From Cordia subcordata (taxonomy: Eukaryota > Streptophyta > Magnoliopsida > Boraginales > Cordiaceae), in assembly GCA_028554755.1 (NCBI GenBank), contig JAPTOF010000024.1:6711001-6775000 (forward strand): DNA of 64,000 nucleotides, given 5' to 3'. Below, one piece after another: positions 2,916 through 61,975 of this stretch; within the stretch, counting starts at the first letter, position 1, and each line of letters begins with the position of its first letter. Position numbers and translations under genes: made by a program. The notes below the pieces were generated by a model. That model saw only the letters and a list, made by a program, of their open reading frames with translations, was not told where the DNA came from and did no database searches.

Positions 2916-3905
2916 AACCTAGAACGGGAGACTGTAGTCAGGTGGTTGAATGATCGAGGACGTAGACAATAAGGATTTAAGCTTAGCTCTAATACACTCA
3001 TCATCAAACTTAAAGGAAACATCTTGCGCTAAGAGCCTACACAAAAGACGTGTTATATGGCTAAAATCCTTAATGAACCAACGGCAGAATCCTGCATGCT
3101 CTAGAAAAGATCTAACATCCTTAACACACTTAGGGATAGACAACTTTTCAATCAATTCTACCTTAGATAGATCAACTTGAATACCACTAAATGAGACTAC
3201 ATGACCAAACGCTATCCCTTGTTGCACCATGAAATGGGATTTCTCCCAACTCAACACTAGATTCTTCTTCACACATCGATCTAAAACTAAAGAGAGGTGA
3301 CTCAAGCACTCATCAAAACTAGCACCAAAGACTGAGAAGTCATCCATGAAAATCTCTAAATGCTTCTCTATCTTGTCACTAGAAATGGCTATCATATACC
3401 TCTGGAAAGTCGCTGGGGCATTACAAAGACTGAAAGGCATCCTCCTATAGGCAAAATCACCATAGGGACAAGTAGAAGTGGTTTTCTCCGGGTCCTCAGG
3501 AAACACAGGGATTTGATTATACCCGGATTAGCCATCTAGAAAGCAATAGTAGCTATGCCCAACTACTCTATCTAAAATCTGGTCTAAGAAAGGCAATGGG
3601 AAATGATCCTTCCTAGTTTTGGAGTTGAGCTTCCTATAGTCAATATAAACTCTCCAACCTGTGAGAGTACGCGAAGGGATAAGCTTTCTTATCTCATTTT
3701 CTACAACTATGATCTAGGATTTCTTAAGGACAACTTGGACCGAGCTAACCCACTCACTATTGGAGATTAGATAAATAATGCATGCATCTAAAAGCTTAAT
3801 GATCTCTTTGTTAATTACTTCACTCATATGTGGGTTTAGCCTCTTTTGCATATCCTTAGAAGGAACGGCTCCATTCTCAAGGTAAATACGATGCATGGTC
3901 AATTC
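2916..3905 (-). pseudogene. GypA reverse transcriptase remnant
   Basis: The N-terminal part is the frame at 3714-3902, with HRIYLENGAVP, KRLNPHMSEVINKEI and SEWVSSVQVVLKKS, the start of gypsy reverse transcriptases. The core is the frame at 2919-3506: TCPYGDFAYRRMPFSLCNAPATFQR, then the catalytic FMDDFSVFG at about 3336-3352, then NLVLSWEKSHFMV and the thumb region. FMDD is the usual form of the YxDD active site in Athila-like elements. Stops between 3506 and 3714 interrupt the fingers region. The domain is recognisable with certainty but inactive. Confidence 0.93.
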
Positions 3906-5110
3906 CTTTCAAATCATCAATTTTCCCCCTATAACCTTCTTATGTTTCCTAGGAACCTTTAAGAGACACTCCTTATGCTCTCTAGAAAGATCAAAAGCTA
4001 TGATAACTAAAAGGGTCTTACTAAGGCCTAGGAATGCATACTTCAAATGGTCGGGAAGGGATTTGAGCTCTAAAGAAGGCCTAAGCTCAATCAAGGGGAA
4101 CTCAACCTCAACATCATCAATGGGAATATTACTAGAATCAAGACTAGAAGGATTAACCTCAAGTAGCTTATCAATCGAAGAATTCTCAACTAAGGAGGTA
4201 GAAGCTACACATTTTCGCTCTAAGGTTTTTAAATCAAAGCTAGTCAACAAATCCTCAAATTTTCTCCATTTTTTCCCATCGGTCATAGTTTTCTCTATAA
4301 AGTCCTTAATGCATGAATAAATCACATCAATTCTAAAGCACTCTTCTCCATCCTCTTCTCCCATACTAGCCCTATTCACTTCGTCGACAACCTTCATGGT
4401 GGATCTCAAATTCCCAAATTTCATCTCTAATAACCCCGACCTACAATGAATAATAGCATTCGCAGTAGTAAAGAAGGGGCGACCTAATAGAACAGGGGTG
4501 GTATGTCTAGAGTCATGTCCCAAATCCATATCTAACACTATAAAGTCAACATGGTACACAAACTCACCTACTTGGACCATAACATCCTCTAGCACACCCT
4601 TAGGTCTACGCTTGGACCTATCAGCTAGCTAAAGAGTAACATGTGTAGGGGACAACTCACCTAGACCTCGCTGTCGATAGATAGAGTAGGGAATGAGATT
4701 AACACTGGACCCTAAATCTAACAAGGCATGATCAATCTGGGTTTCTCTAATCCTACAAGGAATAGAAAAGGCTCCGGGGTCATTTATCTTAGGTAGAAGG
4801 CCCAAAGTACAAATACGACTCACTTTCTCTGTAAGCCTCACCTTTTTAGGAATGTTCGATGAACTACGCTTCCTTGTACAAAAATCCTTAAAGAACTTGG
4901 AATAGGAGGGAATGGAAAGGATCGCATCTTTCAAAGGAAGATTGACCTTTAGGTCCTTAAGATGCTCTAAAATCTTGAAAAACCTAGAATTCTCACTATG
5001 TATAGGCCTTTCTAAAGCAGATAGGAAGGAAACTCTAGGTGCAACCCCATTAGACACATGGGAATCGTCGATAGGCTCTCTAGGTGCAACCCCATTAAAC
5101 ACATGGGAAT
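3906..5110 (-). pseudogene. GypA protease and protease-RT linker remnant
   Basis: The frame at 4629-5102 contains IDHALLDLGSSVNLIPYSIY, which matches the aspartic protease of Athila-like elements (usual core DLGAS). The frame at 3909-4595 follows with VLLGRPFFTTANAIIHCRSG and the pre-RT linker ending LELKSLPDHLKYAFLGL and DLSREHKECLLKV. This linker matters because a related segment is found in the ORF of the non-autonomous elements GypB, GypE and GypH. The protein upstream of the protease contains a tandem 15-residue repeat (5033-5122). The protease and linker frames are separated by a stop near 4600. Confidence 0.85.
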
Positions 5111-5122
5111 CGTCGATAGGCT
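5033..5122 (-). repeat. 45-bp in-frame tandem duplication in GypA polyprotein
   Basis: Two near-identical 45-bp units lie head to tail; each encodes 15 residues containing NGVAPREPIDDSHVS or its variant. One base differs in the second half of the unit. Being a multiple of three, the duplication keeps frame. Confidence 0.85.
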
Positions 5123-5349
5123 CCTTTCCCTCCCGATGAGGGTGGGAAGTACTGCTCTCTCCATGGTCTCTAATAGGCTCAATTCTCTCAATAAGACCCT
5201 ATCTAGAATCCCTTTCAATAGGGCTACTATATGGCTCTCTCGACTCGAAAAGACCACTAGGTGCAGGCATCGCAAAATCAACTTCTACCCTATTATCCAC
5301 TATCCTACTACTCCTAAGAGTGGTGATAGCCTTAGCTTGGGACTAGGGG

Positions 5350-6870
5350 GATAAGTAGCGCTGATGGAGGAACAGGACTAAACTCTAGGGTTCACTTTCA
5401 ATTAAAAAGGAAATTTCCCAAGGTCTCTAGTGCTCAATTGCGTAGCAATCTACCCTAACTGTGTCTCAAACCTAGCCATCTGCTGCCTATAGCTAGTTAT
5501 CTCTTGTCTACTATCGGTTAACTCCTATTGTTGACTAGCTAATGCCTGCTACTAATTCTAAATAAACTGCATTAACTTTATCATATCATTGCTAGGAAAC
5601 TGGCTACTAAAGAAAGCAAGAAGTGTTGGTGGCTGAGGAGCACTAGAAAGCCTAGGTTGATTGACATGGTAAAACCTTAAAGGATTAGCAGGACAGGGTC
5701 ACTGCTGTAGTAGGACTTGGGGTTGGGACGAAGAAGAGTCATGCTGACCTTGCCTCTAAGAAAATTTTGGGTTGTCTTTCCAACCCAGATTGTATGTGTT
5801 CAATTACAAATTGTACTAATGAGAATAACCTTGAATGGCATACACTTGCTCCTTCATAAACTCAGGAAACTGTGATGCTAAAGGGCAAGCTATGGTCTCG
5901 TGAGACAATTAGGAACACATTGCACAAACCTTAACAACTAAAGGGGCCAAGAAAAAACCTATGCTATTAGTCCTATGACGGTGGGATAAATAAGACAAGG
6001 AAATGAATTGGTCTAACTTATTTGTCGAGGCCTCTACCTTAGCGAATAAATCTAAAGAGACCTCAACCTTATTAACTTTTCTCTTGTTACCTCTACAACT
6101 AGACCTTTCCATAACGAAGTTTTGAAAAGAATTTTTGGCCATTAACTCCATTTTTTTCCATGCCTCAGTCGATTTCAAAAGATAGAAGCCACTACCGAAG
6201 GTGGCATTGACCATCATCCTATTTTGTTCATTTAAGCCTTGAAATAAGTATTGCAATAGGTCATGATTACCGTACCCTTGGTGTGGACATTGTTTAAGAA
6301 GGTCTTTGAACCTCTCCCAAGACTCGTGAGAAGATTCTAGATCATGCTAAGAGAAAGCCATAATGGTGGTTCTAAGGTCAGCCGTCTGGGCCATGGGATA
6401 GAATTTTCGAAAGAACTTAGATCGAAGCTCGGCCGGTGTAGTAATGCAACCATTAGGTAAGGAATGCAACCAAGCCCTAGCTTGTCCTTAAGAGAGAAAG
6501 GGAGCAATCTCAGACGTATTACCTCTTGGGCGACATTAGGAACATGGAGAGTGGAACTCATCTAAAAAAAGTCGGTAATATGTTCTAGAAGACTCTTATT
6601 GCTTCCCTCGTAGAAGGAAGAAAGCATGACTAACATATTAAGCTTAATCTCGAAGTTCATCACCCTCAAACTAGTAATTTGATTAGCCAAATTAGGCGTA
6701 ATGGCTACGAGGATGTAGAATTGCCCAAGAGTGGGTTCCTCATCTATGGGTGGGTGTGGTATAAGGGGTTCTTGTCTCTAATGATCTTGGGCTTGATGCC
6801 CATAGTTATGAGGTGGAATAGGATTCATTGGGGGAATGGGAGGATTAGGAGGATGATTTGGATTGGCCAT
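5350..6870 (-). pseudogene. GypA gag remnant
   Basis: This is the structural protein that would form the virus-like particle. The likely start is the ATG at 6868-6870, giving a Pro/Asn-rich N-terminus (MANPNHPPNPP). The capsid-like region appears in the frame at 6337-6561 (LRLLPFSLKDK) and in 5909-6256 (QYLFQGLNEQNRMMVNATFGSGF). A zinc knuckle, CAMCSQLSHETIAC, is at about 5890-5925 and fits CX2CX4HX4C. It is followed by a YNLGWKDNPKFS block and a Gln-rich coiled-coil-like stretch, both typical of Athila gag. Several stops and frameshifts break it. The boundary with protease is arbitrary because gag and pol share one frame in this lineage. Confidence 0.85.
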
Positions 6871-7200: not shown

Positions 7201-8811
7201 TGATACACTATTTGAGCACAAGCCTAAATAGCCCGCAAGTGCACGGGACGTGTGTAGTATAGTGTGTGCAAGTGCGGGGTCGAATCCACAGGGAGGCTAC
7301 CTTAGTTTAGTCTCTATGTGCTCGGGTGCCTTAAAATAGCTATGTGCGTGTGTGTACTTACTTTGGGATGGAAGGGAGCTCGGAAAAAGGAAAATAAAAA
7401 CTAATCTATGGAGGAACTTAAAGGAGCCAAACTAAGAAAGGAAACACTAATAAAGAAGAAGGGGGCCTAGGGTGATTGCATTGCAGCTAGACTTGGGCTA
7501 TGATAACGAATGAGGTCTATCTAAGGCTCGGGACTACTATTGTCATTGTGTTGATCGGGGGTTCTCTTAACCAATACTAGTGGTTTAATCCGTTAGCTAG
7601 ATTTAAAGCTAAGGGCCAATCCCTCCTAGCCTACGCAATCCGTGCTGAGAACTTATCCTCTTGGCTGGATTTAAAGCCAAGGACTAGCACCTAAACACTA
7701 CGTGACATTAAAGCTCGATTAACCAACACTAACGTGAGTGAGGGATACTCTAGTCTAGGTTAACTTATCCGCTTGGCTGGATTTAAAGCCAAGGACTAGC
7801 ACCTAAACTTGACTAAGCAAAGCATGTAACCTATTAGCTGGATTTAAAGCTAAAGCCTACTGTACTAAGCAAAGCCACAAGATTAAGCATAATCAAATCA
7901 CCCATATAAGTAGATAAGAGCATTTGAAGCACAAATAACACATGCATATTCACTTAGGCATTTTAACAAGCACATAGACATGTTTGATTTCCAATACATA
8001 GACATATTGAATCATGCCATAAATTTATGTAAATAAACATGTATTAAGAGCCAAAGATCTACACAAATCCATTATTCAAAGCTCTAATCTAATATACAAC
8101 AACAATCAACCCTAAATCTAGCCTAATCTAGCAACATATTTACAAGAAATAGAGAAAGAACAAGAAGAACTTCCCTAAATTCTTGCTTCCAAATCCGTAC
8201 AAATCCTTCAAATCTTTGTTTAATGCTTCATTCCTAGCTTGGTGTGGGGTTTAGATGATGGTTTAGGGTGTTTTGTGAAGTGGGTAAAGGGTTAGGGTTT
8301 ATTAAGATTTAAGAAATAAAAGTTCCTCCGTCGAAAATGAGCTGAAACGAGCTTTTTATGGATTTCTTTAGCGCACAGCCGGTCGACTGGCTCCTCTTTC
8401 TTGCTCGACCAGCTTCAATCATGATGCTCTTTGGACTGGCCGGTCGACCTAGCCAGTCGACTGGCTTCTTTAGGAACTCGACCGGCTTCAAATCTTTTAT
8501 TCTCTGGAGCGGCCGGTCGACCGTCTTCTTCTAAGTCGACCGGTTGGATCAGAATGATCTCTTCTTTATTTCTTTTCTTCCGGTCTTCATCCGTTAGCTC
8601 ATTTCTTCCTCGCATAAGCTTGAACCCTTCCAAAACACTCCTAAAACATGGAATATAACACTTAGTATAGTATTTATGCACCTAAATACATTATGTACAA
8701 TTATTAACAAATATGCATAAACTTTGTACTAAGTGCACTCAATTATACTCTAAACACCCTTAAATGTGCATGCAAAAACAAGATGCAAACACGCACAAAT
8801 GACACACATCA
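7201..8811 (-). repeat. GypB 3' LTR
   Basis: The 1611-bp LTR starts TGATACACT and ends CACACATCA on the plus strand. It holds four 20-bp hairpins (7593-7612, 7661-7680, 7773-7792, 7834-7853), CACATAGACATG-like repeats (7971-7982, 7996-8007) and five GTCGAC-centred palindromes (8381-8543) just upstream, in element sense, of a weak TATA-like sequence at 8351-8363. Open frames at 8309-8681 fall inside the palindrome cluster and are not genes. Confidence 0.95.
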
Positions 8812-8849
8812 ACACCCCCAAACCTTCCCCTTGCTTGTCCTCAAGCAAG
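8812..8849 (-). promoter_or_regulatory. GypB polypurine tract with adjoining hairpin
   Basis: In element sense a perfect 8-bp hairpin (8830-8849, arms CTTGCTTG and CAAGCAAG, loop AGGA) is followed at once by a purine-rich tract ending GGTTTGGGGGTGT next to the LTR. The tract should prime plus-strand DNA synthesis. Confidence 0.85.
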
Positions 8850-10281
8850 CCTAAATGATGTCTATCCTCATGCTTTTCAAAGAGTTGCCAATTGCATTGA
8901 CTTGCTATCTTTTCACATCCAAGAGGTACAAGGGGTCATTCTTTTCATGTAAGGGCTTCCCTAGTCTTTTTCGGATCCTCCCTTTGATCACAAGGGGTCT
9001 CACACCTCTTTGAAATTTACCAAGTGGCTAGAACCGCCACAACTTAGGATTCCAACTCACGCACTCGGGATGTTGATACTTTATGCCCTATCTACAAACA
9101 TGGCCTCCCAATATGCACTTAGCCTCAAAGATACAAGGAAGAGAAGATACATCACAATGGCTCACATTGACGTAAGAACCTTATCCTAAATACATAAAAA
9201 TAAACAAAAGAGATACTTGTGTCAAATTGACATTATGTCACTTGACACTTATTCAACATACTTCACTTTTCAATCTTTTTGTTGCCTTTTGGCTTTTCTC
9301 TTTTTCTCATTTTTTTTTTCGTTTTTGTTTTTTTTTTAATACATAAATTGAACAAAAAGAAAGGAAAAAGAAGAGGCTAAGGCAAACTAAAAGAACCAAT
9401 CAAGGAATGGGCACTAATATCAACAATCCTTTAAAAACACTTTTTCCAACCAAGTTGTGGGGAAACTACGAGGTGCATTCTTAGAAATACTCACTTCCCA
9501 TAGTTTTCAAAAAGGATTCTCTTCAAAGTCTAGGTTATACCCTACACTCCATTTACTCCCCACAATACACCCTTATCTTCTCCAATCAATTAAGTCAATA
9601 ACAAAAGCCAACTCTCCAACCAACGTGGAGATAAACTAACTCAAAATATGCAAAAAATTGAAAAATTTGAACACATTTTAAACAAAAATAAGATATGGCA
9701 AGCGAATCTATCCCTTATATGATATAAACAATAAATGACAAAGCCACACGACAAGCAATCAACATGAAACACATATGGGGAATGCGGAGAGGGATAAATA
9801 AGGACAAGTAAAAGATGGATAGATACAACCTTGTTTCCATGTAGTCCGCAAATGCCAAAGACAATCCAATGATCTACTAGCCTCTATCTTTTGTGGAAAG
9901 CACTAATGCTCAAAAAACAAAGAAGAGATTAGAAGATAGGCTATGTAAGCTCACATTGACATTTGAAATGATAAACAAGGATGTAAACACGGGGTAAGGG
10001 ATTGATGCACAAATGAAGGAAAGGAGCAAGAACAAGTAAGGGAGTAAAAATCTAACCTACTAAGAATGAAAATAAACAAAAGAAATCGTAAAATATAAAA
10101 AGGTAAGATAAACAAAAGCAATCTAATCTATTATGTACAAAGCAAGAATAAGTACAAGAAAACTAATCTACTATATACAAAGGAAAAGGCAAATAAATAC
10201 AAGAAAAACAAGAAAAATATGAACAAGTCTAGGGTGCCTCCTAGTAGTGCTGGATTTAACGCCTCCAGCCGGGCGCCAATG
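8850..10281 (-). other. GypB 3' non-coding region
   Basis: No gene is visible. It matches the tails of GypA, GypE, GypH, GypI and GypK. It has a T-rich tract at about 9260-9340 and an A/G-rich tract at 9350-9380 that could pair. The inner hairpin plus polypurine-like motif present in relatives appears deleted near 9755. A conserved block lies at 10227-10281, just after the ORF stop, and contains an inverted repeat at 10249-10269 (GCTGGA and TCCAGC). Confidence 0.8.
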
Positions 10282-12627: not shown

Positions 12628-12629
12628 AT

Positions 12630-12641
12630 TGGTATCAGAGC
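12630..12641 (+). promoter_or_regulatory. CopC primer binding site, tRNA-Met type
   Basis: TGGTATCAGAGC starts two bases after the LTR end and is the standard copia site complementary to the 3' end of initiator tRNA-Met. Confidence 0.95.
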
Positions 12642-21818: not shown

Positions 21819-23431
21819 TGATACACTATTTAAGCACAAGCCTAAATAGCCCGCAAGTGCACGGGACGTGTGTAGTATAGTATGTGCAAGTGCGGGGTTG
21901 AATCCACAGGGAGGCTACCTTAGTTTAGTCTCTATGTGCTCGGGTGCCTTAAACTAGCTATGTGCGTGTGTCTATTTACTTTGGGATGGAAGGGAGCTCG
22001 GAAAAAGGAAAATAAAAACTAATTTATGGAGGAACTTAAAGGAGCCAAACTAAGAAAAGAAACACTGATAAAGAAGAAGGGGGCCTAGGGTGATTGCATT
22101 GCAGCTAGACTTGGGCTATGATAACGAATGAGGTCTATCTAAGGCTCGGGACTACTATTGTCATAGTGTTGATCGGGGGTTCTCTTAACCAATACTAGTG
22201 GTTTAATCCGTTAGCTAGATTTAAAGCTAAGGGCCAATCCCTCCTAGCCTACGCAATCCGTGCTGAGAACTTATCCTCTTGGCTGGATTTAAAGCCAAGG
22301 ACTAGCACCTAAACACTACGTGACATTAAAGCTCGATTAACCAACACTAACGTGAGTGAGGGATACTCTAGTCTAGGTTAACTTATCTGCTTGGCTGGAT
22401 TTAAAGCCAAGGACTAGCACCTAAACTCGACTAAGCAAAGCATGTAACCTATTAGCTAGATTTAAAGCTAAAGCCTACTGTACTAAGCAAAGCCACGAGA
22501 TTAAGCATAATCACATCGCCCATATAAGTAGATAAGAGCATTTGAAGCACAAATAACACATGCATATTCACTTAGGCATTTTAACAAACACATAGACATG
22601 TTTGATTTCCAATACATAGACATATTGAATTATGCCATAAATTTATGTAAATAAACATGTATTAAGAGCCAAAGATCTACACAAATCCATTATTCAAAGC
22701 CTTAATCTAATATACAACAACAATCAACCCTAAATCTAGCCTAAACTAGCAACATATTTACAAGAAATAGAGAAAGAACAAGAAGAACTTCCCTAAATTC
22801 TTGCTTCCAAATCCATACAAATCCTTCAAATCTTTGTTTAATGCTTCATTCCTAGCTTGGTATGGGGTTTAGATGGTGGTTTAGGGTGTTTTGTGAAGTG
22901 GGTAAAGGGTTAGGGTTTATTAGGATTTAAGAAATAAAAGTTCCTCCGTTGAAAATTAGCTGAAACAAGCTTTTTATGGATTTCTTCAGTGCACAGCCGG
23001 TCGACCGGCTCCTCTTTCTTGCTCGACCGGCTTCAATCATGATGCTCTCTGGACTGGTCGGTCGACCGGCTTCTTGAGGAACTCGACCGGCTTCAAATCT
23101 TTTATTCTCTGGAGCGGTCGGTCGACCTAGACGATCGACCGGCTCTTCTTCTAAGTCAACCGATTGGATCAGAATGATCTCTTCTTTATTTCTTTTCTTC
23201 CGGTCTTCATCCGTTAGCTCATTTGTTCCTCGCATAAGCTTGAACCCTTCCAAAATACTCCTAAAACATGGAATATAACACTTAGTATAGTATTTATGCA
23301 CCTGAATACATTATGTACAAATATTAACAAATATGCATAAACTTTGTACTAAGTGCACTCAATTATACTCTAAACACCCTTAAATGTGCATGCAAAAACA
23401 AGATGCAAACACGCACAAATGACACACATCA
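21819..23431 (-). repeat. GypB 5' LTR
   Basis: 1613 bp, nearly identical to 7201-8811. It holds the hairpins at 22211-22230, 22279-22298, 22391-22410 and 22452-22471, and a perfect 16-bp palindrome AGCCGGTCGACCGGCT at 22995-23010 just upstream of the TATA-like site near 22971-22980. The palindrome units are arranged differently from the 3' LTR. Confidence 0.95.
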
Positions 23432-23558: not shown

Positions 23559-25381
23559 TGATAGTCGTCTTTGAAGTGCAAGCTCTAAAGGCCTGCAAGC
23601 GTAAAGATCGATGCAGTGTAGTGTGTGCGAGAACGGGTGTCGAACCACAGGAAGGCTATGTTGTGGGATGGATTCTACGTGTGTGTGTTCTAAGGAATAC
23701 CTAAAAGGAGACCTAAACTAACTATTTTTGGTATTTTTGGATGATTGGGAGCTTTAGATAAAGAAACTTTAGATAAAGAAAATAAAACTAAACTATGGGA
23801 GTGGAAAAGTACAGAGACAAACTACCTAGAGGGCATTAACAAATGAGAGGGATTAGGGTGACATCTACTTGCTAATGAGTGATCCTAAACTCAAATACTA
23901 TGGGATTTACATAGAATGGCTTAATGACCAATTGCTTTTAACTAGGTTGCTTGATTAGTGTTCTAATTTCTCCCTAGGACTTGGTACGACTCTGTCCCTA
24001 GGCGCGGCCCCCTAGAGTTACGGCGTGGTCCTTATGACCTAAAGCCTTAAGAGTGACTAACTAGCTTCCTAGGTGACCTAGAACAAACCTACCCTAGTAC
24101 CTAACTCATTGGCTAGCCAAGACCTAGTGTTGCTAGAGTCGATTGAATCTACGCGAAAACCTATTGATTGGATTTAAAGCCAAAAGAGACTCGATCTAAA
24201 CTAGTCTTAATTTAAGCTTCATCATTCTAAAGTCACTAAAGTGGGATTTGACCTATTAGCGCAATCATACATGTTCAAGGCCAAGGTGTTTGCGAATGAA
24301 GTGGCCTATTCAACTACCAAACATCTTCATTCTCGGATCACACCATTAAAAACACTTTGAGCCAACATGTATATAGTTTTAAAGTCATATTTTCTACTAG
24401 GCATGCAAACATAAACATAGACATGAATATAAGCATACCCACTTCACAAGATCCACACATAAACACATAGACATGATTATAGAATGGATTAGAGGTGTTT
24501 AGTAGTAAATAGACTTCAATTTTTACATATGCAACTCTCATAGGCATATTATCAAACACCTAGACATATATTGAACAATAGCCATTTAAATAAGAAGAAC
24601 ATAGCATATGTATATATATTAAGCCATTAAATCCCATAATATAAAAGCATAGAATCAACCCATTACACAAGTATCATCACCCTAAACATATATACTCAAA
24701 CATAATATAAAAGATGATGAAAGAGAGAATAGAAGACTCTTCTTCCATCCTAGCAATTTTTGTACAAAATCTTTGAGTAGGTTTCAATCCAAATGTTTGA
24801 ACCCTCTAAATAAGCTTGAATCTAGGTGAAAAGTGTGTGATTGGGTATGTGTTAATGGTGGTATAGCTAGGGTTTTGTATGTGTGTGATAGATGTATGAT
24901 GGGTATAAAAAAACCCTCCAAAAGCTAAAAAATCAAGTTTTTATAGCATCAGCTGCACACTGCTTGTCAACCTAGCCGGTGACAGGCTTCTCTTCTTAGC
25001 TTATCTGGCTTTCAAAGTGATACTCTATAGACTGGCAGGTCGACCGGCTTTTTAGGGGAGTTTCAATTTTTCTCAGTCGACGGCTTCTCCAGTTGGCCTT
25101 TTATTCTCTTTCTTACTCTTGGCCTTTAACACACGACCTGTACGTCTTCTATCTTCGACATTCATTCTTGTTCAAGCTCCGTTTTAGCCCTATAGCTCGC
25201 CTAAAGCACAAAATTAAGCATTTAGTATAACATTTAACTTAAAAACTCAATTATGTACATTTGTTTACGCTTCAGCCTAATTCTAGTATATGTACTATAC
25301 TAATGCATCTTCTAAGGCTCAAAACACCTCTTAAACATAGGCAATTAACAACACAAACACACACAAAAACATAACACATCA
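23559..25381 (-). repeat. GypA 5' LTR
   Basis: The 1823-bp LTR starts TGATAGTCG and ends AACACATCA on the plus strand. It shares modules with the GypB LTR: a hairpin remnant near 24161-24185, a hairpin with lost loop at about 24112-24123, AACATAGACATG-like repeats, a GGTCGACCGG site at about 25038-25047 and a TATA box GCTATAAAAAC at 24938-24947. Bases 25382-25386 (CTTCT) would be its target duplication; the partner lies outside the window. Confidence 0.9.
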
Positions 25382-28799: not shown

Positions 28800-30395
28800 T
28801 GATGCGTGTTTTAACCAGCAAGCATACAGATAATTCATGGTATAGCAGATACGAGTACAAGTATCATTTCCATAGGAAGGCTACATTAGTTTGGTCTTTA
28901 CATGCTCGTGTGCTAAAGATAGCTACGTGCATGTGGGTACTTTCTTTAGGATAGAAAGGAGCTTAGAAAAAGGAAAATTAAATCTAAAATAGGAACTATA
29001 GCTGCCAAGCTAAGGAAGGAAAACTCTACAAGATAGAAGGGAACCTAGAGTGATTACGTTGCAACTAAACTCAGGCTATAATAATGGATTAAGTCTACCC
29101 AAGGCTCGGGACTTCTATTATCATTGTGTTGATTATGGTGGTTCAACCTATTAGCGAGGATTAAAGCTAAAAGCCAATCCCTCCTAGCCTACACAATCTA
29201 TTCTTGAAACTTATCCTCTTAGCTGGGTTTAATGCCAAGGACTAGCACCTAAACACTACGTGACATTAAGGCTCAATTAACCAACACTAACGTGGGTGAT
29301 GGATAATCTAGTCTAGGTTAACTTATCCTCTTGGTTGAGTTTAAAGCCGAGGACTAGCACTTAAACTCAACTAAGCATAGCATGTAACCTATTAACTGGG
29401 TTTAAAGCTAAAGCCTACTCTATTAAGCAAAGCCATAAATTAAGCACAATCTAGCAACACCCATAAAAGTACATAAAAGCATTTGAAGCACAAATAAAAC
29501 ATGCATATTCAATTAGTCATTTTAACAAACACATAGACATGTTTGATTTTCAATACATAGACATATTGAATCATGCCATAGATTTATGTAAACAAACATG
29601 TATTAAGAGCCAAAGATAAACACAAATCCTTTACTTAAAGCCCTAACCTAATATATAATATCAATCAACCTTCGATCTAACTCAATTGCAAAGCTTATTT
29701 ACAAGAATGAGAAAGGATAAGAAACTCCCCTTTAAACTTTTGCTCAAATCCAAAATAAAACCCTTCAATCTCTTCTTACAAGCTTCAATCCTAGCTTGGT
29801 TTGATGTGGGATTGTGTTTTTGGGTGTTTGGTGAAGTTGGTAGAGGTTAGGGTTTATAAGGGTTTTAAGAAATAAAAGTTCTTCCCTTCTAAAATTGCGA
29901 AAAGTCAAGCTTTTATAGATTGTTTCAGCGTATAGCTGGTAAACCGACCTTGGGAAGAGGGGGCAGCTTAACATGGATGCTTGTTGACTTGGTCGGAGTA
30001 TCTAGCTGGGGAAGTGACCAGCCTAACTGGGGAGGTGACTGGCCTTTTTCCTCTTATGCCCAAATTTTGCTCGATTTGCTCTCAATCTTCTCCGCTTGCT
30101 TCATGCTCTTTCCTAGAGTTTCTAAATGGCTTTTTTGTCATTTCTTCTGCTTCATATCAAACCTAGCTTTGCTCCTTGATCTAAGCATCATCATTTTAGG
30201 CTCAAGTCTTTCTCTCAAAATGTGCCTAAAACATGAAATAAGGCACTTAGTGTCGTATTTATGGGTTTTAAGTACTTATGCCCAAATATGACTAATAGTG
30301 CACAAATGCAACCTTAAATGCACTCAATTATGCTCAAAACACCCTGAAATTGTATGAAAACAATATATACGAACATACACAAATCACACACATCA
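28800..30395 (-). repeat. GypE 3' LTR
   Basis: 1596 bp, starting TGATGCGTG and ending CACACATCA. It carries four hairpin sites (29151-29170, 29219-29238, 29331-29350, 29392-29411), some with G-U pairs or mismatches, and a TATA-like CTATAAAAGC on the minus strand near 29908-29920. The palindrome cluster is decayed (29935-30050). Frames at 29765-30291 are not genes. Confidence 0.9.
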
Positions 30396-41534: not shown

Positions 41535-41536
41535 CT

Positions 41537-43262: not shown

Positions 43263-44675
43263 ATTATAGGTGTCAAGCTAAGGAAGGAAAACTCTATAAG
43301 GTAGAAAGGGACCTCAGGTGATTGTATTGCAACAAGAATCGGGCTATAGTAACAGATTACATCTACCTAGAGCTAAGGACTTCTATTATTGTTATGTTCA
43401 TTAAGGGTCTCTTAACCAATACTAGTGGTTCAACCTATTAGCTGGGTTTAAAGCTAAAGGAATCCCTCCTAGCCTATGCAATCTATGCTTAGAACTTATC
43501 CTTTTGGTTTGGTTTAAAGCCAAAGACGAGCACTTAAACACTACATGACATTAAGGCTCGATTAACCAAAACTAACGTGGGTGATGGATACTCTAGTCTA
43601 GGTTAACTTATCCTCTTGGCTAGGTTTAAAGCCAAGGACGAGCACCTAAACTTGACTAAGCATAGCATGTAACCTATTAACTAGTTTAAAGCTAAAACCT
43701 ACTCTACTAAGCAAAGACATGAATTAAGCACAATCCAATAACACCCATATGAGTAGATAAAAGCATTTAAAGGGCAAATAATACTTGTATATTCACTTAG
43801 GCATTTTAACAAACACATAGACATATTTGATTTTCAATACACAGACATATTGAATCATGCCATAGATTTATATAAACAAAAATGTATTAAGAGCAAAAGA
43901 TATACACAAATCCTTTATTCAAAGGCCTAATTTAATATACAACGTCAATAAATCCTCGATCTATCTCAATTACAAAGCATATTTACAATAATAAGAAAAG
44001 GAATAAGAAACTCCCCTTCAAAGCTTCACTCAAATCCAAAGCAAAACCATTGAATCCTTTGTTACAAGTTTCAATCCTAGCATGGTTTGGTGTGGGATGG
44101 TTGTTTTCGTGTTTGGTGAAGTGGGTAAAGGTGAGGGTTTATTAGGGTTTTAAGAAATAAAAGTTCCTCACCTTTAAAATTGCTGAAAATCAAGCTTTAT
44201 AGATTGCTTTAGCGCACTCTCAGTCCACTTTCGAGAAGAGGAGGACCGACTTAACATGGATACTTCCTAACTTGGCCACTCTATTGAGCCTGTCGACCAG
44301 CCTAGTCGAGAGGGTGATCAGCCTCTCTATACTTATGCTCAAATTTTGCTCAATTTGGTCCTCATCTTCTCCGCTTGCTTCGTGCTTATTCTAGGGGGTT
44401 TTCAAATGGCTTTTTCTTCGTTTCTTCTCCTTCAAATCAAACCTAGGTTTTCTCCTTGATCTACGCATCATCATTTTAGGCTCAAGTGCTTCTCCCAAAA
44501 TGTGCCTAAAACACAAAATAAGGCACTTAGTGTTGCATTTATGTGTTTTGACTACTTATGCACAAATATCACTAATAGTGCACAAATGCAACCCTAATGC
44601 ACTCAATTATGCTGAAAACACCCTAAAAAATGTATGTAAACAATATATACAAACATATACAAATCACACACATCA
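43263..44675 (-). repeat. GypE 5' LTR, second part
   Basis: Resumes at the point matching 29015 of the 3' LTR and ends CACACATCA. Hairpin sites at 43438-43457, 43504-43523, 43616-43635 and 43677-43695. A GTCGAC site survives at 44292-44297. TATA-like CTATAAAGC on the minus strand lies near 44192-44205. Confidence 0.92.
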
Positions 44676-46369: not shown

Positions 46370-48364
46370 TAATGTGTTGGTTTTGGGTGTGATTTTGCAT
46401 TGTATTTGTATATCCATTTTGAAGTGTTTTCTGCTCTATTAGGTGTATTAGTATACCATTTATATCATACTTGAGTATATTAGGCTTTAGATGTCTATAG
46501 TTAAGCTTAAAGCATAAATGCTATACTAAAGTGCACTTAACTTGTCTTTTAGGTAAGATTTGGACCAATGCTTGGAGCTTAAAATGATGAAGAGTTGATT
46601 ATAATACCAATCCAAAGGTATTTTGGATGAGAAGAAAGCAAGAAGATTGCATTTGCAAGCTCCCAAACGTAGAATGGAGTAACAGGGCAAAATTGAGCGC
46701 AATAGGAGACATGGAATAAGTTTGGACATGTTTATGGGATGCAAAATATGAAGAAAAATGGCTTGGGAGATTCTCGGAAGTGAGACAAAGTCATAGAAAA
46801 AAACCATGCGCGAATCAAAGCCAAAGCGAAGCCAAATGGAGCAAAACAAAAAGAGCTGGCTAACTGTCCTTCAGAGAAGCTGTGCATTGGCTCACTAGGC
46901 TGGTAAAAATAGTGAGAAACCCTCCTTTGGTAGAATTGAGGTCCCTTGGTACCGGTGCACCGGTTAGGTGTTCCGGTAGTTGCAGAAAATTGGCTATATA
47001 AGCCCTCTTTTGGCCATTTTATAGGAGGGCAAGTCATATTCTTTCACACTCATCTCCCAAAACCCTAATCCTCTGATCTCCCACCTCTCACACACTCTTC
47101 CATACACAAAATCACTTTGGAATCAAGCATTTAAGAGGATCAAACACAAGAATTTGGGCATAACTCATGGATTTGGATAGAAGGGTATATCTCTTTTGTC
47201 CCAAATCTAAATATGTATGATTAGAGCTACGTAGGGTGATTATTCTTGTATTTATAGATTGATTATTACTCTTATGTAATGGGAACTGATGGATTTATAT
47301 ATATATATATATATATGCTTTGTGCTTAGAGTTTCAAAGGCCATTTTATATACATGTCTATGTCTTTGTTGAAATGCCTCAATGATGTAGCATATGTATA
47401 TTGAAGTCTATTTTACTATTAACCATTTCTAAATCATTATGCTAGTATGTCTAGGTGTTTGTGTGGTGATTGCATGAGGTATGCTTATATACATGTCTAT
47501 ATGTGTGTTTACATATCAAATAACATAAATAGCTTCTATTGCATACATGTCGGGTACCATTGCTTAAATTGGTGTAATCTACGTATGTCTATGTGCTTAG
47601 TAGTAGAATACCCCAGAATATTCTCAAATGCCATGCCTTAGATGTGTTTGCTTTGCGCTTAAACGTTAATACCCGATATTATGGTGATGATCGGTTGCGC
47701 ATAACTAATGACTAGCCTATCGAGTCTCCCTTAGCTTTAAATCCAGTTAATGGGTTTTAGGGTAGGTTAGTTGACCTTAGATGGACTAGGTCTTGGCTTT
47801 AAATCCAGCCAACGGTTTAGACGTTAGGGTTAGATTGATCTAAGTTACCTCGAATCTTAACTAGCTAGCTCTATGGCCCAAAGTCATAAAAACCATACGC
47901 CATGGCTCTAGGGGTCGACACTTAGGGATAGATTCGCACTGAGTCTTAGGGTATAATTAGGAGGTGAATTAGGAGACTAGACAAGAGCCACTAAGTTTAA
48001 TCCATCAAGCAACCATAACAAGAAATAATAATCACCCATTTGCAAGCTATAATCACCCTATTCCCTATTTCCATGTGTTAGCATTCCCTTAGATCGCTTG
48101 ATTCCCCTATCACAGACAGACACACACCACCTTTTTATTTCCTTGTTCTTAGATTAGGTTTACTTTTCCCGAGCTCCCTTTAAATCGAAAACCCCAAAAG
48201 CATTGTAGTTAGGACCTCAACACGTAGCTTTTAGGACGTACTTAGCCTAGGAAACCATACACGTTAGGCCTCCCCGTGAATTTGACCTCGACTCGCACAC
48301 ACTGTACTACACACGTCCCGTGTGCTTGCAGGCTATTTAGGCTTGTGCTGCGAGATAGCGATCA
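46370..48364 (+). repeat. GypH 5' LTR
   Basis: 1995 bp. A perfect 14-bp palindrome ACCGGTGCACCGGT (46951-46964) lies 30 bp upstream of a TATA box CTATATAAG (46994-47002). Downstream are CATGTCTATGTG-like repeats (47353-47600), a TA run at 47297-47316 absent from the other LTR, and hairpins at 47731-47750 and 47793-47812. Frames at 46526-47037 overlap the promoter region and are not genes. Confidence 0.92.
46994..47002 (+). promoter_or_regulatory. GypH TATA box
   Basis: CTATATAAG, repeated at 52509-52517 in the 3' LTR, with the palindromes a fixed 30-31 bp upstream in both. Confidence 0.7.
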
Positions 48365-51854: not shown

Positions 51855-53838
51855 TGATGTGTTGGTTTCGTGTGTGATTTTCCACTATATTTCTATATCT
51901 ATTTTGAAGTGTTTTGATCTCTATTAGGTGTATTAGTATAGCATTTATATCATACTTGAGCATATTAGGCATTAGATGTCTATAATTAAGCTTAAAGCAT
52001 AAATGCTACACTAAAGTGCACTTAACTTATCTTTTAGGTGAGATTTGGAACAATCCTTGGAACTTAAAATGATAAAGAGGTGATGATAATACCAAGCCAA
52101 AGGTGTTTTGGATGAGAATAAAGCAAGAAGATTGCATTTGCAAGCTCTCGGACGAAGAACGAAGTAACAGGGCCAAAAATCAAGCGCAACGGGAGCCAAA
52201 TTTGGAGCTTGCAACCAAAAGGAACATCGAATAAGTTTGGAAATTTTTATGGGGTGAAAAAGATGAATAAAAATGGCTTGGGAGATTCCTAGAGCGATAC
52301 AAAGCCATAGAAAAAAAATTGCACGCGAATCGGAGCCAAAACAAAGCCGAACGGAGCAAAACAAGAAGAGCTGGCTGACTGCCCTTCAGAGAACCGGTGC
52401 ACCGGCTCACTAGGCTGGTAAAAACAGTGAGCAACCCTCCTTTGGTAAAATTGAGGTCCCTTGGTACTGGTGCACCGGTTAGGTGTTCCAGTGGTCACAA
52501 AAAATTGGCTATATAAGCCCACTTTTAGCCATTTTATAGAAGAACAAGTTATATTCTTTCATACCCATCTCCCAAAACCCTAATCCTCTCATCTCCCACC
52601 TCTCACACACTCTTCCACACACAAAAGCACTTTGGGATTAAGCATTTAAGAGGATCAAACACAAGGATTTGGGCATAGCTCATGGATTGTAAAGCATGGA
52701 TTTGGATAGAAGGGTATCTCTCTTTTGTCCCAAATCTAAATATGTATGATTAGAGCTATCTAGGGTGATTATTCTTGTATTTATGGATCGATTCTTACTC
52801 TTAGGGTTTCAAAGGCCATTTTATATACATGTCTATATGTTTGTTGAAATGCTTCAATGATGTGGCATATGTATATTGAAATCTATTTTACTATTAACCA
52901 TGTTTAAATCATTATGCTTGCATGTCTATGTATTTGTGTGGTGATTGCATGAAGTGGGTATGCTTATATACATGTCTATGTGTGTGTTTGCATATCAAAT
53001 AACATAAATAGCTTCTATTGCATACATGTCGGGTACCATTGCTTAAATTGGTGTATCTATGTATGTCTATGTGCTTAGTAGTAGAATACCCCGTAATATT
53101 CTTGAACGCCATGCCCTAGATGTGTTTGCGTTGCACTTAAATGTTAATACCCACTATTGGGATGATGATCGGTAATGCATAACTAATGGCTAGCCTAGGT
53201 TGAGTCTTCCTTAGCTTTAATCTAGCTAATGGGTTTCAGGGTAGGTTAGTCAACCTTAAATGGACTAGGTCTTGGCTTTAAATCCAGCCAACAGTTTAGA
53301 TGCTAGTGTTAGATCGATCTAAGTCACCTAGAATCCTAACTAGCTAGCCCTATGGTCTTAAGTCATAAAGACCATACGCCATGGCTCTAGGGGTCGACAA
53401 CTAGAGACGGATTCACACAGAGTCTTAGGGTGTAATTAGGTGGTTAATTAGGAGACTAGACGAGAGCAACCGAGTTTAATCTATCAAGCAACCCTAACAA
53501 GAAGTAATAATCACCCATCTGCAAGCTGTAATCACCCTATTCCCTATTTTCACGTGTTAGCATCCCCTTAGATCGCTTGATTCCCCCATCACATACACAC
53601 ACACACCACCTTTTTATTTCCTTGTTCTTAGATTAGGTTTACTTTTCCTGAGCTCTCTTTAAATCAAAAAAACCCTAAATAGTTAGGACCTTAACACGTA
53701 GCTTTTAGGACGTACTTAGCCTAGGACACCATGCATATTAGGCCTCCCCTTGGATTCGACCTTGCACTCATACACACTGTACTACACACGTCCCGTGTGC
53801 TTGCGGGCCATTTAGGCTTGTGCTACAAGATAGTGATT
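51855..53838 (+). repeat. GypH 3' LTR
   Basis: About 1984 bp, starting TGATGTGTTGG. Palindromes at 52394-52405 and 52467-52478, TATA box at 52509-52517, hairpins at 53211-53229 and 53272-53291. The terminus reads GATAGTGAT where the 5' copy has GATAGCGATCA, so the end is altered. Confidence 0.9.
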
Positions 53839-54734: not shown

Positions 54735-56432
54735 TCATTGAAGTGTTCTAAACCCGCAAGCGAACAGATCTTACAATATAGGGACGTGAATATAGGGTAT
54801 CTTCTCCTCAAGGAGGCAAACTATGGCGAGTTCCCAAGGCAAGTGTATTCGGAGAGCTACAAGGTCCTAAACTAACTCTTTTTGGTTTTTTTCAATTTGA
54901 ATGGGCCCAATAGAAGTAGACATAAGTAAAAAAACCTTAAACTAAGGGGTGGAGGGATAGAAATCAAACTAACTAGAGGGAAGAAACACAAATAATAGGG
55001 AGTAGGGTGACCTTCACTTGATTATGAAGGTCGATATTATACTTTTGATTAAAGGGTATTTGATGGATTTGAATGGCTCTGTCTATAATTCCTAATTAAC
55101 TATCTTATTATTCTCTAGGCCTCGGTGTAATTCTATCCCTAGGTGGATCTGTCCTTGAGCGTGGTATTGTCTTTATTGCCTATAGTTTTAGGGTTAGTTA
55201 CTCAGGTTTTCTAGGTGATGTTAATTGATCCTGCCCTAATATCTAAATTGTTAGCTAGGTTTAAAGCTAAGACCTAGGCCAATTAAGGTTGATTAAACTA
55301 ATGTCGACACCTATTAGTTGGAGTTAAAGCTAAAGGAACTAAACTAAGCCTAGCCTTTAACCACGTACTATCAATCACGCATCACAATAAGGGGTAAAGC
55401 AATTAAAGCACAAATACATACATTTTCTTCATTATGGCATTTCATCGAACACAGACATATTTGATACCAAATACATAGACATGTTAAAATCATACCATAA
55501 AAGCAATAAAAAACCAACATGTATATGTAGTTAATGTATGCTTAATCATTGTGACATTAACAAACACATAGACATGATTGAAAATAGTCATTAAGCAAGA
55601 AAAGCGAAGCAGATATTAATCCATCAAATATTCCATAACAAGAATATAATAATCTAACCCATAATCATAGTTTTAGTCACCCTATACTTCTTTATTCAAA
55701 CATGAAATAAACTAAGATAGAAGGGAGATAATAAGTCTTCCTTTCCATCCTTAACAATCTCTTTCCAAAGTTTGTTCAAATCCTCTAAACAAGTGTTTGA
55801 TCCTTTAAGATAGCTTGATTCTATGTGTAGATGTGTATGGAAGAGTGTGTGTAAGGTTGGTGAGAAGGATGGTGGGCTAGGCTCTTGTGGGTGTGTGAAT
55901 AGTAAGTGAAGAGATGCTCAAAATGGTTGAAAATTGCATATTTATAGCTTCTTCAGCACCTTCAGTTGGTTGACTTAGCCAATCGATCAGTACCCTCGAC
56001 CGGCACAGATTGAAGCGTTCTAGGTTTGCTAGTCGACCGGTACTGGGACTTGCTTGACTGATAACAACTTGAGCTCTTTGGTCATACCAATTGACCTAGC
56101 CGATCAACCAGCTCTTTTCTTGAGCTTGATTGATTGTGCCAGATTGCCTTTTTCTTCATGGTTTGTTCATCCGGTGTTTATTTTGTAGCTTGTTCATCCA
56201 CTTTCTTCAACGTCCATCTTTATTCAAGCTCGTTTCCATCCCATAGCTCATCTAAAGCACAAAATGAAGCATTTAGTGTAGCATTTCCTCACTAAACTCA
56301 TTATGGACACTTAAAGCCAATTACGCACAAATATCATGTAAATGCTACACTAATGCCTACCTAAATAGCCCAAAACACCTCTAAAATCATAAGAACATGC
56401 AAAGACAAACACACACAATCCAACACACATCA
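54735..56432 (-). repeat. GypI left LTR
   Basis: It ends CACACATCA and is followed by polypurine-like CAAACCTCC-type sequence. Hairpins at 55251-55270 and 55314-55333, a palindromic AGTCGACCGG at 56031-56040 and a TATA box GCTATAAATATG (55938-55949, minus). The left boundary is uncertain by tens of bases. Confidence 0.78.
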
Positions 56433-58430: not shown

Positions 58431-59500
58431 AGTGAAGTGTATGAGTATACGGTCGAATCCATAGAAAGGCTATAAACTAGTTTTACTTTTGCAATCTAAT
58501 GTCTTCAAAGAAGCTACAAACAACTAACCTAACTTCCTTTTTTTTAAAGGTTTTTTAGATTGAAGGGAGCTAGACACAAGTCAAGTAAAACTAAACTAAG
58601 AAAAGTGCAATCAAACTAAGAAGTATGTGTGCACAATAGAGGAATGGGAAATCAAACTACCTAAAGGGATTAAGCACTAAAGGGAGAAAGCTAAGGTGAT
58701 TCCTACTTGCTTATGAGTTCTTTATACACTCTTGCTAGGGCTTGAATGATGGTCTAAAAGGGAAGCTTATTGTTTAAAGTCTGGATACCTAATTAGCTTG
58801 CCTTATTATCCTTAGAGTCTCAATGTGGATCTATCCCTAGACAAGCCTCCCTAGAGCATAACTTGGTCCCTATGACTTAAGGGTTTAAGACTAGCTTACA
58901 AGGCATTCTAGGTATTGATGATTGTTCATTATTTAGAACCTAAGGCATTAGTTGGGTATAAAACTAAGACCTAAGTTGACCTTAGTAGCATTAGGCTAAT
59001 TAGAGTCCTATTAGTTGATTTTAAAACTAAAGGGCCCTCAACTTAGTCTAAACACTAATTATGAACCAACAGTCAATCACTACTTCAAGCATTTAAGGCA
59101 TTAAAAGCTCATTTTCACATATACACAATAGGTGAACTTCCTAATTACTCATAGACAAGTCAATTAAAAGTCATAAAATTGTGTCATAACCTGCATACAA
59201 GGAAGATTTAACATGCTTTGATCCATTGAAGCCATAACTTAGACATATAGACATGTTTAAAGTTATTAAAATTCTCTTTTATGAAGTAAACCCTAAGATT
59301 TAGCACATAGACATACTAAATTAGGATTATAAGGCTCTTAAGAGCAAGCATGTTAAATAAGCACATATACTTCCATAGAAACCATACATCAAACACTTGG
59401 AGTGTAAGATAAAATAGCCATACATTCATAAAATTCTAAGTATATGTTCCACCATCTTTCAAAATCAAACATAGAGAGATAGAGAAGCTTGTGGAATGGA
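58430..59500 (-). repeat. GypI right LTR, truncated
   Basis: Minus-strand LTR related to the piece at 57780-57965. Two hairpins with changed stems lie at 58948-58967 and 59011-59030, and CATAGACATG-like repeats around 59235-59310. The right end is unclear. Confidence 0.65.
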
Positions 59501-60837: not shown

Positions 60838-61912
60838 TGATACACTATCTCACGGTACAAGACTAAATAGCCCACAAACGCATGAGTCCTATGTGGTACG
60901 ATGTGAGAGTGCGGGATCAAATCCACGGGGAAGCTTAACGTGTAAAGTGTCCTAAGTTATGTGCATCCTAAAAAGCTATGTGTTAGATCCCTAAACCATA
61001 TCCTTTTGGTGTTTTTAGAGTGAGGAAAGCTGGGGAAAGATAAATCTAAGCTAAGGATAAGAAAGTAAAAAAGGCGACATGTATGTGTGTGTCTCAAAGG
61101 GGAATCAAGCGATCTAAGGGGATGCTAACATGTGGAAATGGGGAATAGAGTGATTAAGGCTTGCAAATGGGTGATTACTATTTCTTGTTAGGGTTAGTTG
61201 ATGGATTAAACTTGGTTGCTCTTGTCTAGACTCCAAATTAACTTTCTAATTACACCCTAAGCCTCAGTGCGAATCTGTCTCTAAGTGTTGCCCTCTAGGG
61301 CCACGGCATATGCTCTTAATGACTTAGGGCCATAGGGTAGCTAGTTAAGATTCTAGGTAACTTAGATTGATCTAACCCTAGCGTTTAAAACATTGGCTGG
61401 AATTAAAGCCAAGATCTAGTATGTCCAAAGTCAACTAACCTACCCTAAAACCCATTAGCTAGATTTAAAGCTAAGGGAGACTCAACCAAGGCCAGCCATT
61501 AGTTATGCACCACCGATCATCATCACAATAGCAGATATTAACATTTGAGCACACAGCAAACACATCTGGGGCATGACATTCGAGAATATTCTGGAGTATT
61601 CTATTACTAAGCACATAGACCTATTTAGATTACACCAATTCAAGCAATAGAACCTGACATGTAAGTAATAGAAGCTATTTATCCTATTAAGTATGTGAAT
61701 ACACACATAGACATGCATATAAGCATACCCAATTCTAATCATCACACAAACACATAGATATGCTCATACAATGATTTAGAGATGGTTAATAACATAATAG
61801 ACTTCAATATACTTAAGCAACATCATTGAAGCATTTCTACAAGCACATAGACATGAATGTAAATTTGCCAATCAAAACCCTAAGTACAAGCATGCATGCA
61901 TACATACATACA

Positions 61913-61975
<63 letters not shown>

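What the first reader, a model, noticed from the sequence alone, without database searches (positions are those of the whole stretch)
7593..7853. Four 20-nt hairpins per gypsy LTR with compensatory stem changes
The GypB LTR carries TTAGCTAGATTTAAAGCTAA (7593), TTGGCTGGATTTAAAGCCAA (7661 and 7773) and TTAGCTGGATTTAAAGCTAA (7834). Each is a 6-bp stem with an 8-nt loop. An A-T pair in one copy is a G-C pair in another, with both sides changed. The same hairpin recurs in GypE (29151-29411, 43438-43695), GypH (47731, 47793, 53211, 53272), GypK (61393, 61455) and GypI (55251, 55314), where most of the surrounding LTR has diverged. They lie 500-760 nt downstream of the TATA-like site, so they should be in the RNA. 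I do not know of a described function. Packaging, dimerisation or translation control are guesses.
Basis: partly seen in the sequence, partly recalled or inferred. Interest (0 to 1): 0.85.

Follow-up and report, generated by a model that had tools for sequence, protein, structure and literature searches.

The report
Paired RNA hairpins in plant retrotransposons
Many related mobile elements in this plant genome keep the same pair of folded RNA hairpins near their start, and when one side of a hairpin changes the other tends to change to match, so the fold itself appears to be preserved, probably as a handle used when the element copies itself.

Summary
The window lies in a 472-Mb genome, apparently a plant's. 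It holds ten LTRs, whole or partial, of Athila-like gypsy elements, each with the hairpin. Nine have two hairpins 60-63 nt apart; in the tenth (J) the second has lost its loop. B and E have four. About 6,900 copies of the first hairpin occur genome-wide, against 98 for a control pattern.

In 125 copies, partner positions change together more than expected: 19 co-changes on a tree, 14 ending in Watson-Crick pairs, against 6.9 expected (0 of 5,000 randomisations). Between neighbouring LTRs taken as one element's pair, stem changes were almost all uncompensated: 26 single, 2 double.

Both hairpins are longer than reported: each has an outer helix behind a small 3' bulge. Outside the B family, the second hairpin's outer helix has three G-U pairs: all seven pairs form in 49 of 80 rows on the coding strand, 0 of 80 on the other. 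This favours RNA over DNA.

Against: in an all-pairs, phylogeny-aware test no pair reaches E<0.05 (best 0.19), and independent changes per pair are few. Function is inferred; a leader-RNA element for packaging or dimerisation is my best guess.

The parts
7201..8811 (-). 3' LTR of element B (TGATG...TATCA, 1,611 bp)
   Evidence: LTR pair with 21819-23431, 95.6% identical; TSD CTTCT; PPT GTTTGGGGGTGT next to it
21819..23431 (-). 5' LTR of element B
   Evidence: PBS 6 nt beyond its end
7834..7853 (-). B 3' LTR HP1 (RNA UUAGCUUUAAAUCCAGCUAA)
7773..7792 (-). B 3' LTR HP2 (UUGGCUUUAAAUCCAGCCAA)
7661..7680 (-). B 3' LTR HP3, part of a 47-nt duplication of the HP2 region
7593..7612 (-). B 3' LTR HP4
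22211..22471 (-). B 5' LTR HP4-HP1 (22211, 22279, 22391, 22452)
29151..29411 (-). E 3' LTR hairpins (29151, 29219, 29331, 29392), partly decayed
43438..43695 (-). E 5' LTR hairpins (43438, 43504, 43616, 43677); HP1 has a 7-nt loop
47728..47754 (+). H 5' LTR HP1 with its 3-bp outer stem and bulged U (core 47731-47750)
47786..47820 (+). H 5' LTR HP2 with 7-bp outer stem and 1-nt bulge (core 47793-47812)
53211..53291 (+). H 3' LTR HP1 (53211, 7-nt loop) and HP2 (53272)
61393..61474 (-). K 3' LTR HP2 (61393) and HP1 (61455)
55251..55333 (-). I 3' LTR HP2 (55251, A-U at 3/18) and HP1 (55314)
58948..59030 (-). LTR fragment F: HP2 (58948) and HP1 (59011), both with U-A at 5/16
24164..24183 (-). J LTR HP1 (5' LTR of the pol-bearing element A into which B is inserted)
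24109..24120 (-). J LTR HP2 with the 8-nt loop deleted, leaving TTGGCTAGCCAA
21795..21812 (-). primer binding site TGGCGCCATTGCCGGGGA of B
   Evidence: tRNA-Asp letters recalled; tRNA-Asp stated for this lineage in PMC1142308 (passages)
8354..8361 (-). TATA-like CCATAAAA in B; CTATAAAA in E and J, CTATAAAT in I, CTATATAA in H
2919..6346 (-). pol-bearing element A: gag remnant 5909-6346 (PF03732, below its cut-off), ORF 3909-4628 read as protease by eye, RT 2919-3527 (PF00078)

Best explanation
A tandem pair of bulged RNA hairpins in the transcribed part of the LTR (5' leader, R/U5) of an Athila-like gypsy group. Shown by sequence: each hairpin has a 6-bp inner stem and an 8-nt UUAAAYCY loop, and recurs in diverged LTR families. 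HP1 and HP2 are 60-63 nt apart. In the LTRs with a recognisable end, HP1 lies about 611-652 nt before that end, where the tRNA primer site follows. Stem partners tend to change together. Supported: both hairpins have an outer helix behind a 1-2 nt 3' bulge; outside the B family that of HP2 pairs fully on the sense strand only. Inferred: the fold is maintained by selection during transposition, as RNA. Guessed (about 0.4): it is a cis-acting handle on the genomic RNA, recognised by Gag of the pol-bearing partner or used in RNA dimerisation, for packaging. That would let short non-autonomous relatives be carried by the autonomous element. The loop plus its closing pair reads UUUAAA, a self-complementary hexamer, so loop-loop contacts between hairpins are possible.
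For: Genome-wide number: 6,928 HP1-type sites against 98 for the reversed pattern. Pair 3/18 in 96 of the 100 listed rows (those with a TTAAA loop): 48 A-T, 42 G-C, 1 A-C, 0 G-T, 5 other. Co-changes on one branch (parsimony): 19 in 14 stem pairs, 14 ending Watson-Crick, against null 6.9 (sd 2.3, 0 of 5,000); non-partner opposite-arm pairs show 0.37 per pair against 1.36. HP1 3/18 ranks 1 of 12,246 and the pair across the HP1 bulge ranks 3. Neighbour LTR pairs: 26 single against 2 double inner-stem changes. HP2 outer stem, non-B: 0.92 paired at the proposed register against at most 0.59 when slid, antisense 0.60; all 7 pairs present in 49 of 80 rows sense and 0 of 80 antisense; pairs -3/+4 and -7/+8 exceed all 2,000 re-dealings. 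RNAalifold on 54 of 79 rows draws the HP2 outer helix in sense and not in antisense. In B, sense SCI is 0.82 (z -4.2) against antisense 0.60 (z -2.3). The hairpins occur in J, the LTR of a pol-bearing element, and in B and H, where no pol domain was found in the few ORFs tested (one in B, two in H).
Against: No pair reaches E<0.05 in the all-pairs test. Independent contrasts per pair are few (1-6 on supported branches in the summaries shown), none significant alone; HP1 5/16 shows no tendency in the part of the output that was not cut, and has no same-branch double change. Single-change decay gives no clear strand bias at pairs 3/18 and 4/17: 14 events to G-U against 10 to A-C. Pair 5/16 shows more C-A than U-G (27 to 7 rows). 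For HP1 the outer stem does not separate the strands (0.93 sense, 0.88 antisense, non-B). In HP2, 24% of non-B rows lack the first outer pair, and five of seven outer pairs do not beat re-dealing. Some families have lost HP2 (L042, c17_12375) or its loop (J). RNAalifold on all 79 non-B rows gave almost nothing: SCI 0.06 sense and 0.10 antisense, z -2.5 and -10.0; in the 54 rows chosen for intact inner stems the antisense strand also scores (SCI 1.42 against 1.45, z -4.9 against -5.5). 104 of the 125 modules were found by patterns that fix parts of the hairpin, which inflates conservation. No transcript, Gag-binding or other-species data were available.
Confidence: 0.45

Rival explanations
1. 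DNA-level palindrome: a binding site for a dimeric host transcription or chromatin factor inside the LTR.
For: The inner stem is a perfect inverted repeat on both strands and is conserved. Hairpins fold on either strand in many of the copies tested.
Against: A dimer site with a degenerate base would allow mixed half-sites, but mixed 3/18 states are rare (1 of 91 rows that are A-T, G-C, A-C or G-T). The outer helices sit across a bulge, off the dyad, and that of HP2 contains G-U pairs. Distance to the TATA-like box varies (507-763) more than distance to the LTR end (about 611-652 where the end is recognisable).
Confidence: 0.15
2. RNA structure with another role: translation control of the long leader, RNA stability or nuclear export, rather than packaging.
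For: Position in the presumed leader upstream of gag; stable local folding (z -3.4 for 291 nt of B; z -1.8 for 116 nt of H).
Against: Nothing specific. Sharing between pol-bearing and short elements fits packaging but does not exclude this.
Confidence: 0.25
3. No function: compensatory changes produced by palindrome correction (template switching) or by recombination that swaps whole hairpins between families.
For: Two LTR classes (A-T and G-C at 3/18) exist to swap between. HP1 and HP2 are paralogous. Independent changes are few.
Against: Differences between neighbour LTRs are nearly all single (26 to 2), so DNA-level correction after insertion is not common. The A-U state at 4/17 has eight places genome-wide; the seven fetched fall in six groups by flank. 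HP2 5/16 C-G to U-A co-changes fell on three separate branches. Ten-column blocks inside the hairpins are up to 0.91-0.95 identical and flank blocks 0.55-0.86, but 50 of those 71 rows were picked for a perfect core, so this point is weak.
Confidence: 0.15

Closest known systems
Retroviral packaging/dimerisation hairpins (for example the tandem stem-loops of murine leukaemia virus Psi, HIV-1 DIS; recalled)
   Same: Tandem hairpins in the genomic RNA leader, conserved loops, a palindromic loop sequence
   Different: Here inside the LTR, about 550-650 nt upstream of the primer site for HP1 and HP2; loop is A/U-rich; no binding data; no sequence relation tested
Athila/Calypso/Diaspora lineage of plant Ty3-gypsy elements
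   Same: Primer site complementary to tRNA-Asp a few nt from the LTR (PMC1142308, passages), 5-bp TSD, gag and RT in element A
   Different: A term search of the main text of PMC1142308 (Diaspora) found 0 occurrences of hairpin, stem-loop or secondary structure
Cassandra, Helenus and Ajax: LTRs carrying 5S rRNA- or tRNA-derived sequence (PMC10886601, passages)
   Same: A conserved small-RNA-like module inside LTRs of non-autonomous elements
   Different: Those derive from known small RNA genes and are linked to Pol III promoters; this module matches no Rfam family

Membership tests
Athila-like Ty3-gypsy LTR retrotransposon | LTR pair, TG...CA ends and 5-bp TSD | tested here: met
   B: LTRs 95.6% identical, TGATG...TATCA, TSD CTTCT
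Athila-like Ty3-gypsy LTR retrotransposon | PBS for tRNA-Asp next to the 5' LTR | tested here: met
   TGGCGCCATTGCCGGGGA 6 nt from the LTR end in B; best matches 13, 14 and 15 of 18 in J, E, H. tRNA letters recalled (one mismatch to them in B); lineage feature
Athila-like Ty3-gypsy LTR retrotransposon | RT falls in the Athila clade | tested here: inconclusive
   RT fragment is PF00078 and matches RTs at 58-67% identity in the 120 hits listed of 3,162, those with a named source mostly plants; no clade tree was made, and the Athila call rests partly on recalled motifs
RNA structure under selection | Covariation beyond phylogeny | tested here: inconclusive
   All-pairs E not below 0.05; 15-pair E 0.0002 and 0.007 for two pairs; co-change test 0 of 5,000; independent contrasts too few
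RNA structure under selection | Strand-specific pairing (G-U kept on the RNA strand) | tested here: inconclusive
   HP2 outer stem 49 of 80 sense, 0 of 80 antisense; but HP1 outer stem and inner-stem decay show no clear bias
Retroelement packaging or dimerisation signal | Present in the genomic RNA leader | not tested
   Only inferred from TATA-like boxes
Retroelement packaging or dimerisation signal | Binds Gag, or directs RNA into particles, or dimerises | not testable with these tools
   Needs bench data
Any Rfam family | Covariance-model match | tested here: not met
   No hit at gathering threshold in the window or at E<=1 in the B LTR

The most novel reading that the evidence does not exclude
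A previously undescribed packaging/dimerisation element of plant Athila-like retrotransposons: two or four bulged hairpins with self-complementary UUUAAA loops, kept by compensatory evolution in both pol-bearing and short non-autonomous families, by which one machinery carries many relatives.
Probability: 0.25. Interest if true: 0.75.

Novelty: new variant of a known kind. Interest (0 to 1): 0.55.

Why it matters
Cis-acting RNA signals of plant LTR retrotransposons are poorly defined (general knowledge). A short hairpin pair present thousands of times in one genome, with compensatory changes, is a concrete and cheaply testable candidate for how short non-autonomous elements recruit the machinery of others. 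It could also serve as a marker for annotating this group.

Tried and rejected
Relatives elsewhere. The hairpin pattern gave 8 single hits in viral contigs with unrelated context, taken as chance. The two-hairpin pattern gave 0 in viral and 0 in genome contigs. The U5 pattern gave 0 in viral contigs. A primer-site pattern gave 4 viral contigs that I did not examine. No collection of other plant genomes was at hand, so distribution outside this genome is untested.

Proteins. The B ORF (345 aa) has no Pfam hit above cut-off and no protein hit at E<=0.001.

Literature. One search for the letters themselves gave five papers, none on retrotransposons by title. Searches on Athila hairpins and untranslated regions (19), plant LTR stem-loops (41), gag-only elements (42), packaging signals (62, no paper), Athila plus tRNA-Asp/PPT (85), structure and covariation (109, no paper) and Athila leader structure (119, no paper) listed nothing whose title or abstract start describes these hairpins. 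I saw listings for these and find-passages only of PMC1142308, PMC11963269 and PMC10886601. Searches were malformed and not answered.

Strand from decay. I hoped single changes would show G-U favoured over A-C. In my sample they do not clearly (14 to 10). The genome-wide count of G-U at 4/17 is 207, but its A-C partner count did not complete, so that test is incomplete. The A-U double at 4/17 (8 genome-wide) may not exceed what single rates predict.

RNAalifold on all 79 non-B rows failed, which I attribute to decayed copies breaking the consensus.

LTR ends. My first ends for E (28785), H (48362), K (60843) and J (23569 or 23563) were off by 2-15 nt; one search gives 28800, 48364, 60838 and 23559. 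The HP-to-end distances printed carry the old ends.

Full report
What is there. The window is C17:6711001-6775000 of a 472-Mb genome, apparently a plant's judging by its elements and the named RT relatives. It is rich in gypsy LTRs of one group. From self-comparison, primer site and PPT I place LTRs at B 7201-8811 and 21819-23431, E 28800-30395 and 43231-44675 + 34173-34375 (split by a nested element), H 46370-48364 and 51855 to about 53838, K 60838-62957, J 23559-25381, I 56431 to about 54751 (end not recognisable) and a fragment F 58421-59066. All are on the minus strand except H. In B the LTR runs TGATG...TATCA, is preceded by the tract GTTTGGGGGTGT and followed after 6 nt by TGGCGCCATTGCCGGGGA. 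B has TSD CTTCT and is inserted in the leader of element A, whose 5' LTR is J and which has gag and RT remnants with Pfam matches, the gag one below its cut-off.

The hairpins. All claimed sites exist. Two, HP1 and HP2, 60-63 nt apart, are in nine of the ten window LTRs. B and E have HP3 and HP4 as well, partly by a 47-nt duplication. J keeps HP1, but its HP2 has lost the loop. Where the LTR end is recognisable HP1 starts about 611 (E), 624 (J), 627-633 (H), 636 (K) and 652 (B) nt before it, while the distance from the TATA-like box ranges from 507 to 763 (positions, ends).

More than chance. In the window there are 22 matches against 0.13 expected. In the genome there are 12,067 exact matches to the core pattern and 6,928 to an HP1 pattern with most stem positions free, against 98 for its reversal. 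Recurrence alone is explained by the elements' copy number. The point is how the stems vary.

Sample. 125 modules: 21 from a contiguous 264 kb (selected only by a profile of the module), 50 around perfect hairpins on C1, 54 around HP1 sites on C1 from the list. Eleven of the 115 small loci gave no full module and were left out. The last 54 were picked on parts of HP1 and the flank letters AATRGGT, so I do not use them for HP1 outer-stem strand counts.

Covariation. Pair HP1 3/18: A-T 64, G-C 53, G-T 3, A-C 1, other 4. HP2 3/18: G-C 92, A-T 12, G-T 5, A-C 3, other 5, gaps 8. On a tree from columns outside the hairpins, with substitutions redistributed over branches, HP1 3/18 ranks 1 of 12,246 pairs, HP1 -1/+2 ranks 3 and HP2 3/18 ranks 36. 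All-pairs E is 0.19, 5.6 and 71; restricted to the 15 proposed pairs it is 0.0002, 0.007 and 0.087. The other 12 pairs rank 898 or lower. An earlier run on 71 rows ranked the three 1, 5 and 6 of 11,026. So no single pair is significant in the all-pairs test. Counting branches on which both partners change gives 19 (14 ending Watson-Crick) against 6.9 expected, none of 5,000 reaching it; partner pairs show 1.36 per pair, non-partner opposite-arm pairs 0.37, same-arm pairs 0.23. Strict independent contrasts on supported branches are few and not significant: same way against opposite way was 1.9 to 0.0 of 2 pairs (HP1 3/18), 1.8 to 0.2 of 5 (HP2 3/18), 1.3 to 0.1 of 2 (HP1 4/17), 3.5 to 0.0 of 6 (HP2 5/16) and 0.9 to 0.0 of 1 (HP1 -1/+2). 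The summary for HP1 5/16 was cut and the visible part shows no tendency; two control pairs gave 0.1 to 0.1 and 0.5 to 0.3 of 2. Eight genomic sites have A-U at 4/17; the seven fetched fall in six groups by flank.

Selection or mutation. In 19 same-orientation neighbour pairs taken as the two LTRs of one element (3-16 kb apart; some may be distinct insertions), inner-stem differences were 26 single and 2 double, one of the doubles Watson-Crick. Changes after insertion are thus mostly uncompensated, whereas between families they are often compensated. That favours selection in active lineages over palindrome correction of resident DNA. Correction during reverse transcription, and recombination between families, are not excluded.

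RNA or DNA, and which strand. Folding showed that HP1 continues past a bulged U into 2-3 more pairs, and HP2 past a 1-nt bulge into 7 pairs in H, or a 2-nt bulge in B. In 80 non-B rows the HP2 outer stem is 0.92 paired on the sense strand at this register, at most 0.59 at others, and 0.60 on the antisense strand. 49 of 80 rows have all seven pairs in sense and none in antisense. Pairs -3/+4 and -7/+8 beat all 2,000 re-dealings in sense; the other five outer pairs do not stand out by this test, some because they hardly vary. B still pairs with a different outer sequence (0.84 sense, 0.62 antisense). The HP1 outer stem does not separate the strands (0.93 and 0.88 in 46 non-B rows not picked on the flank). 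RNAalifold draws the HP2 outer helix in sense only, in 54 of 79 rows chosen for intact inner stems, though overall scores of the two strands are close (SCI 1.45 and 1.42; a 35-nt HP2 piece folds better in sense in 37 of 54). With all 79 rows it failed. In B, SCI is 0.82 sense against 0.60 antisense. Inner-stem decay shows no clear strand preference: 14 events to G-U against 10 to A-C. I therefore lean to sense RNA, not proven.

Mechanism. Shown: conserved paired hairpins with co-changing stems. Inferred: leader RNA element. Guess: recognition by Gag or dimerisation for packaging, shared by a pol-bearing element (J/A) and short elements B, E and H, whose interiors without nested insertions are about 3.5-3.8 kb (coordinates). 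No pol domain was found in the ORFs tested, which are one in B and two of five listed in H; E was not tested. Translation or stability roles are nearly as likely. The palindromic UUUAAA in the loop makes loop-loop contact possible, but A-U pairs are weak.

Known or new. No Rfam match. The literature searches named under Tried and rejected listed no description of this module; the library holds open-licence papers only. Tandem leader hairpins as packaging signals are a known kind in retroviruses (recalled). I therefore call this a new variant of a known kind, pending function.

Noticed in passing
8812-8850 (-), 51815-51855 (+), 62958-63000 (-), 30396-30440 (-): A second hairpin, GCTTGCTTGAGGACAAGCAAG-like (8-bp stem, 4-nt loop in B, with wobbles or mismatches elsewhere), sits just upstream of the polypurine tract in B, H, K and E.
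   Followed up: partly
50880-50922 (+) and 727-760 (-): A similar hairpin plus a GTTTGGGGGT tract lies inside the internal region, about 930 nt upstream of the real tract in H, with no LTR start recognised after it; it could be a central polypurine tract or a relic.
   Followed up: no
7215-7300 (-), 21833-21915 (-): Strongly conserved U5 end (CCCTGTGGATTCGACCC...CCCGTGCACTTGCGGG in B 3' LTR, the latter a hairpin near the primer site), about 86-88% identical between the B 3' LTR and H although most of the LTR has diverged.
   Followed up: no
20577-21614 (-): 345-aa ORF next to the 5' LTR of B with a CCHC-like cysteine pattern (by eye), no Pfam hit above cut-off and no protein relative found.
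   Followed up: partly
10734-20096 and 34376-43230: Copia-like elements (assigned by eye: repeat pairs in both, integrase-like ORFs in the first, distant similarity to it in the second) nested inside B and inside the E 5' LTR; B itself nested in A.
   Followed up: partly
L042 (+), and left of the window at C17:6523375 (-): A family in which HP1 is intact but HP2 is replaced by unrelated sequence.
   Followed up: no
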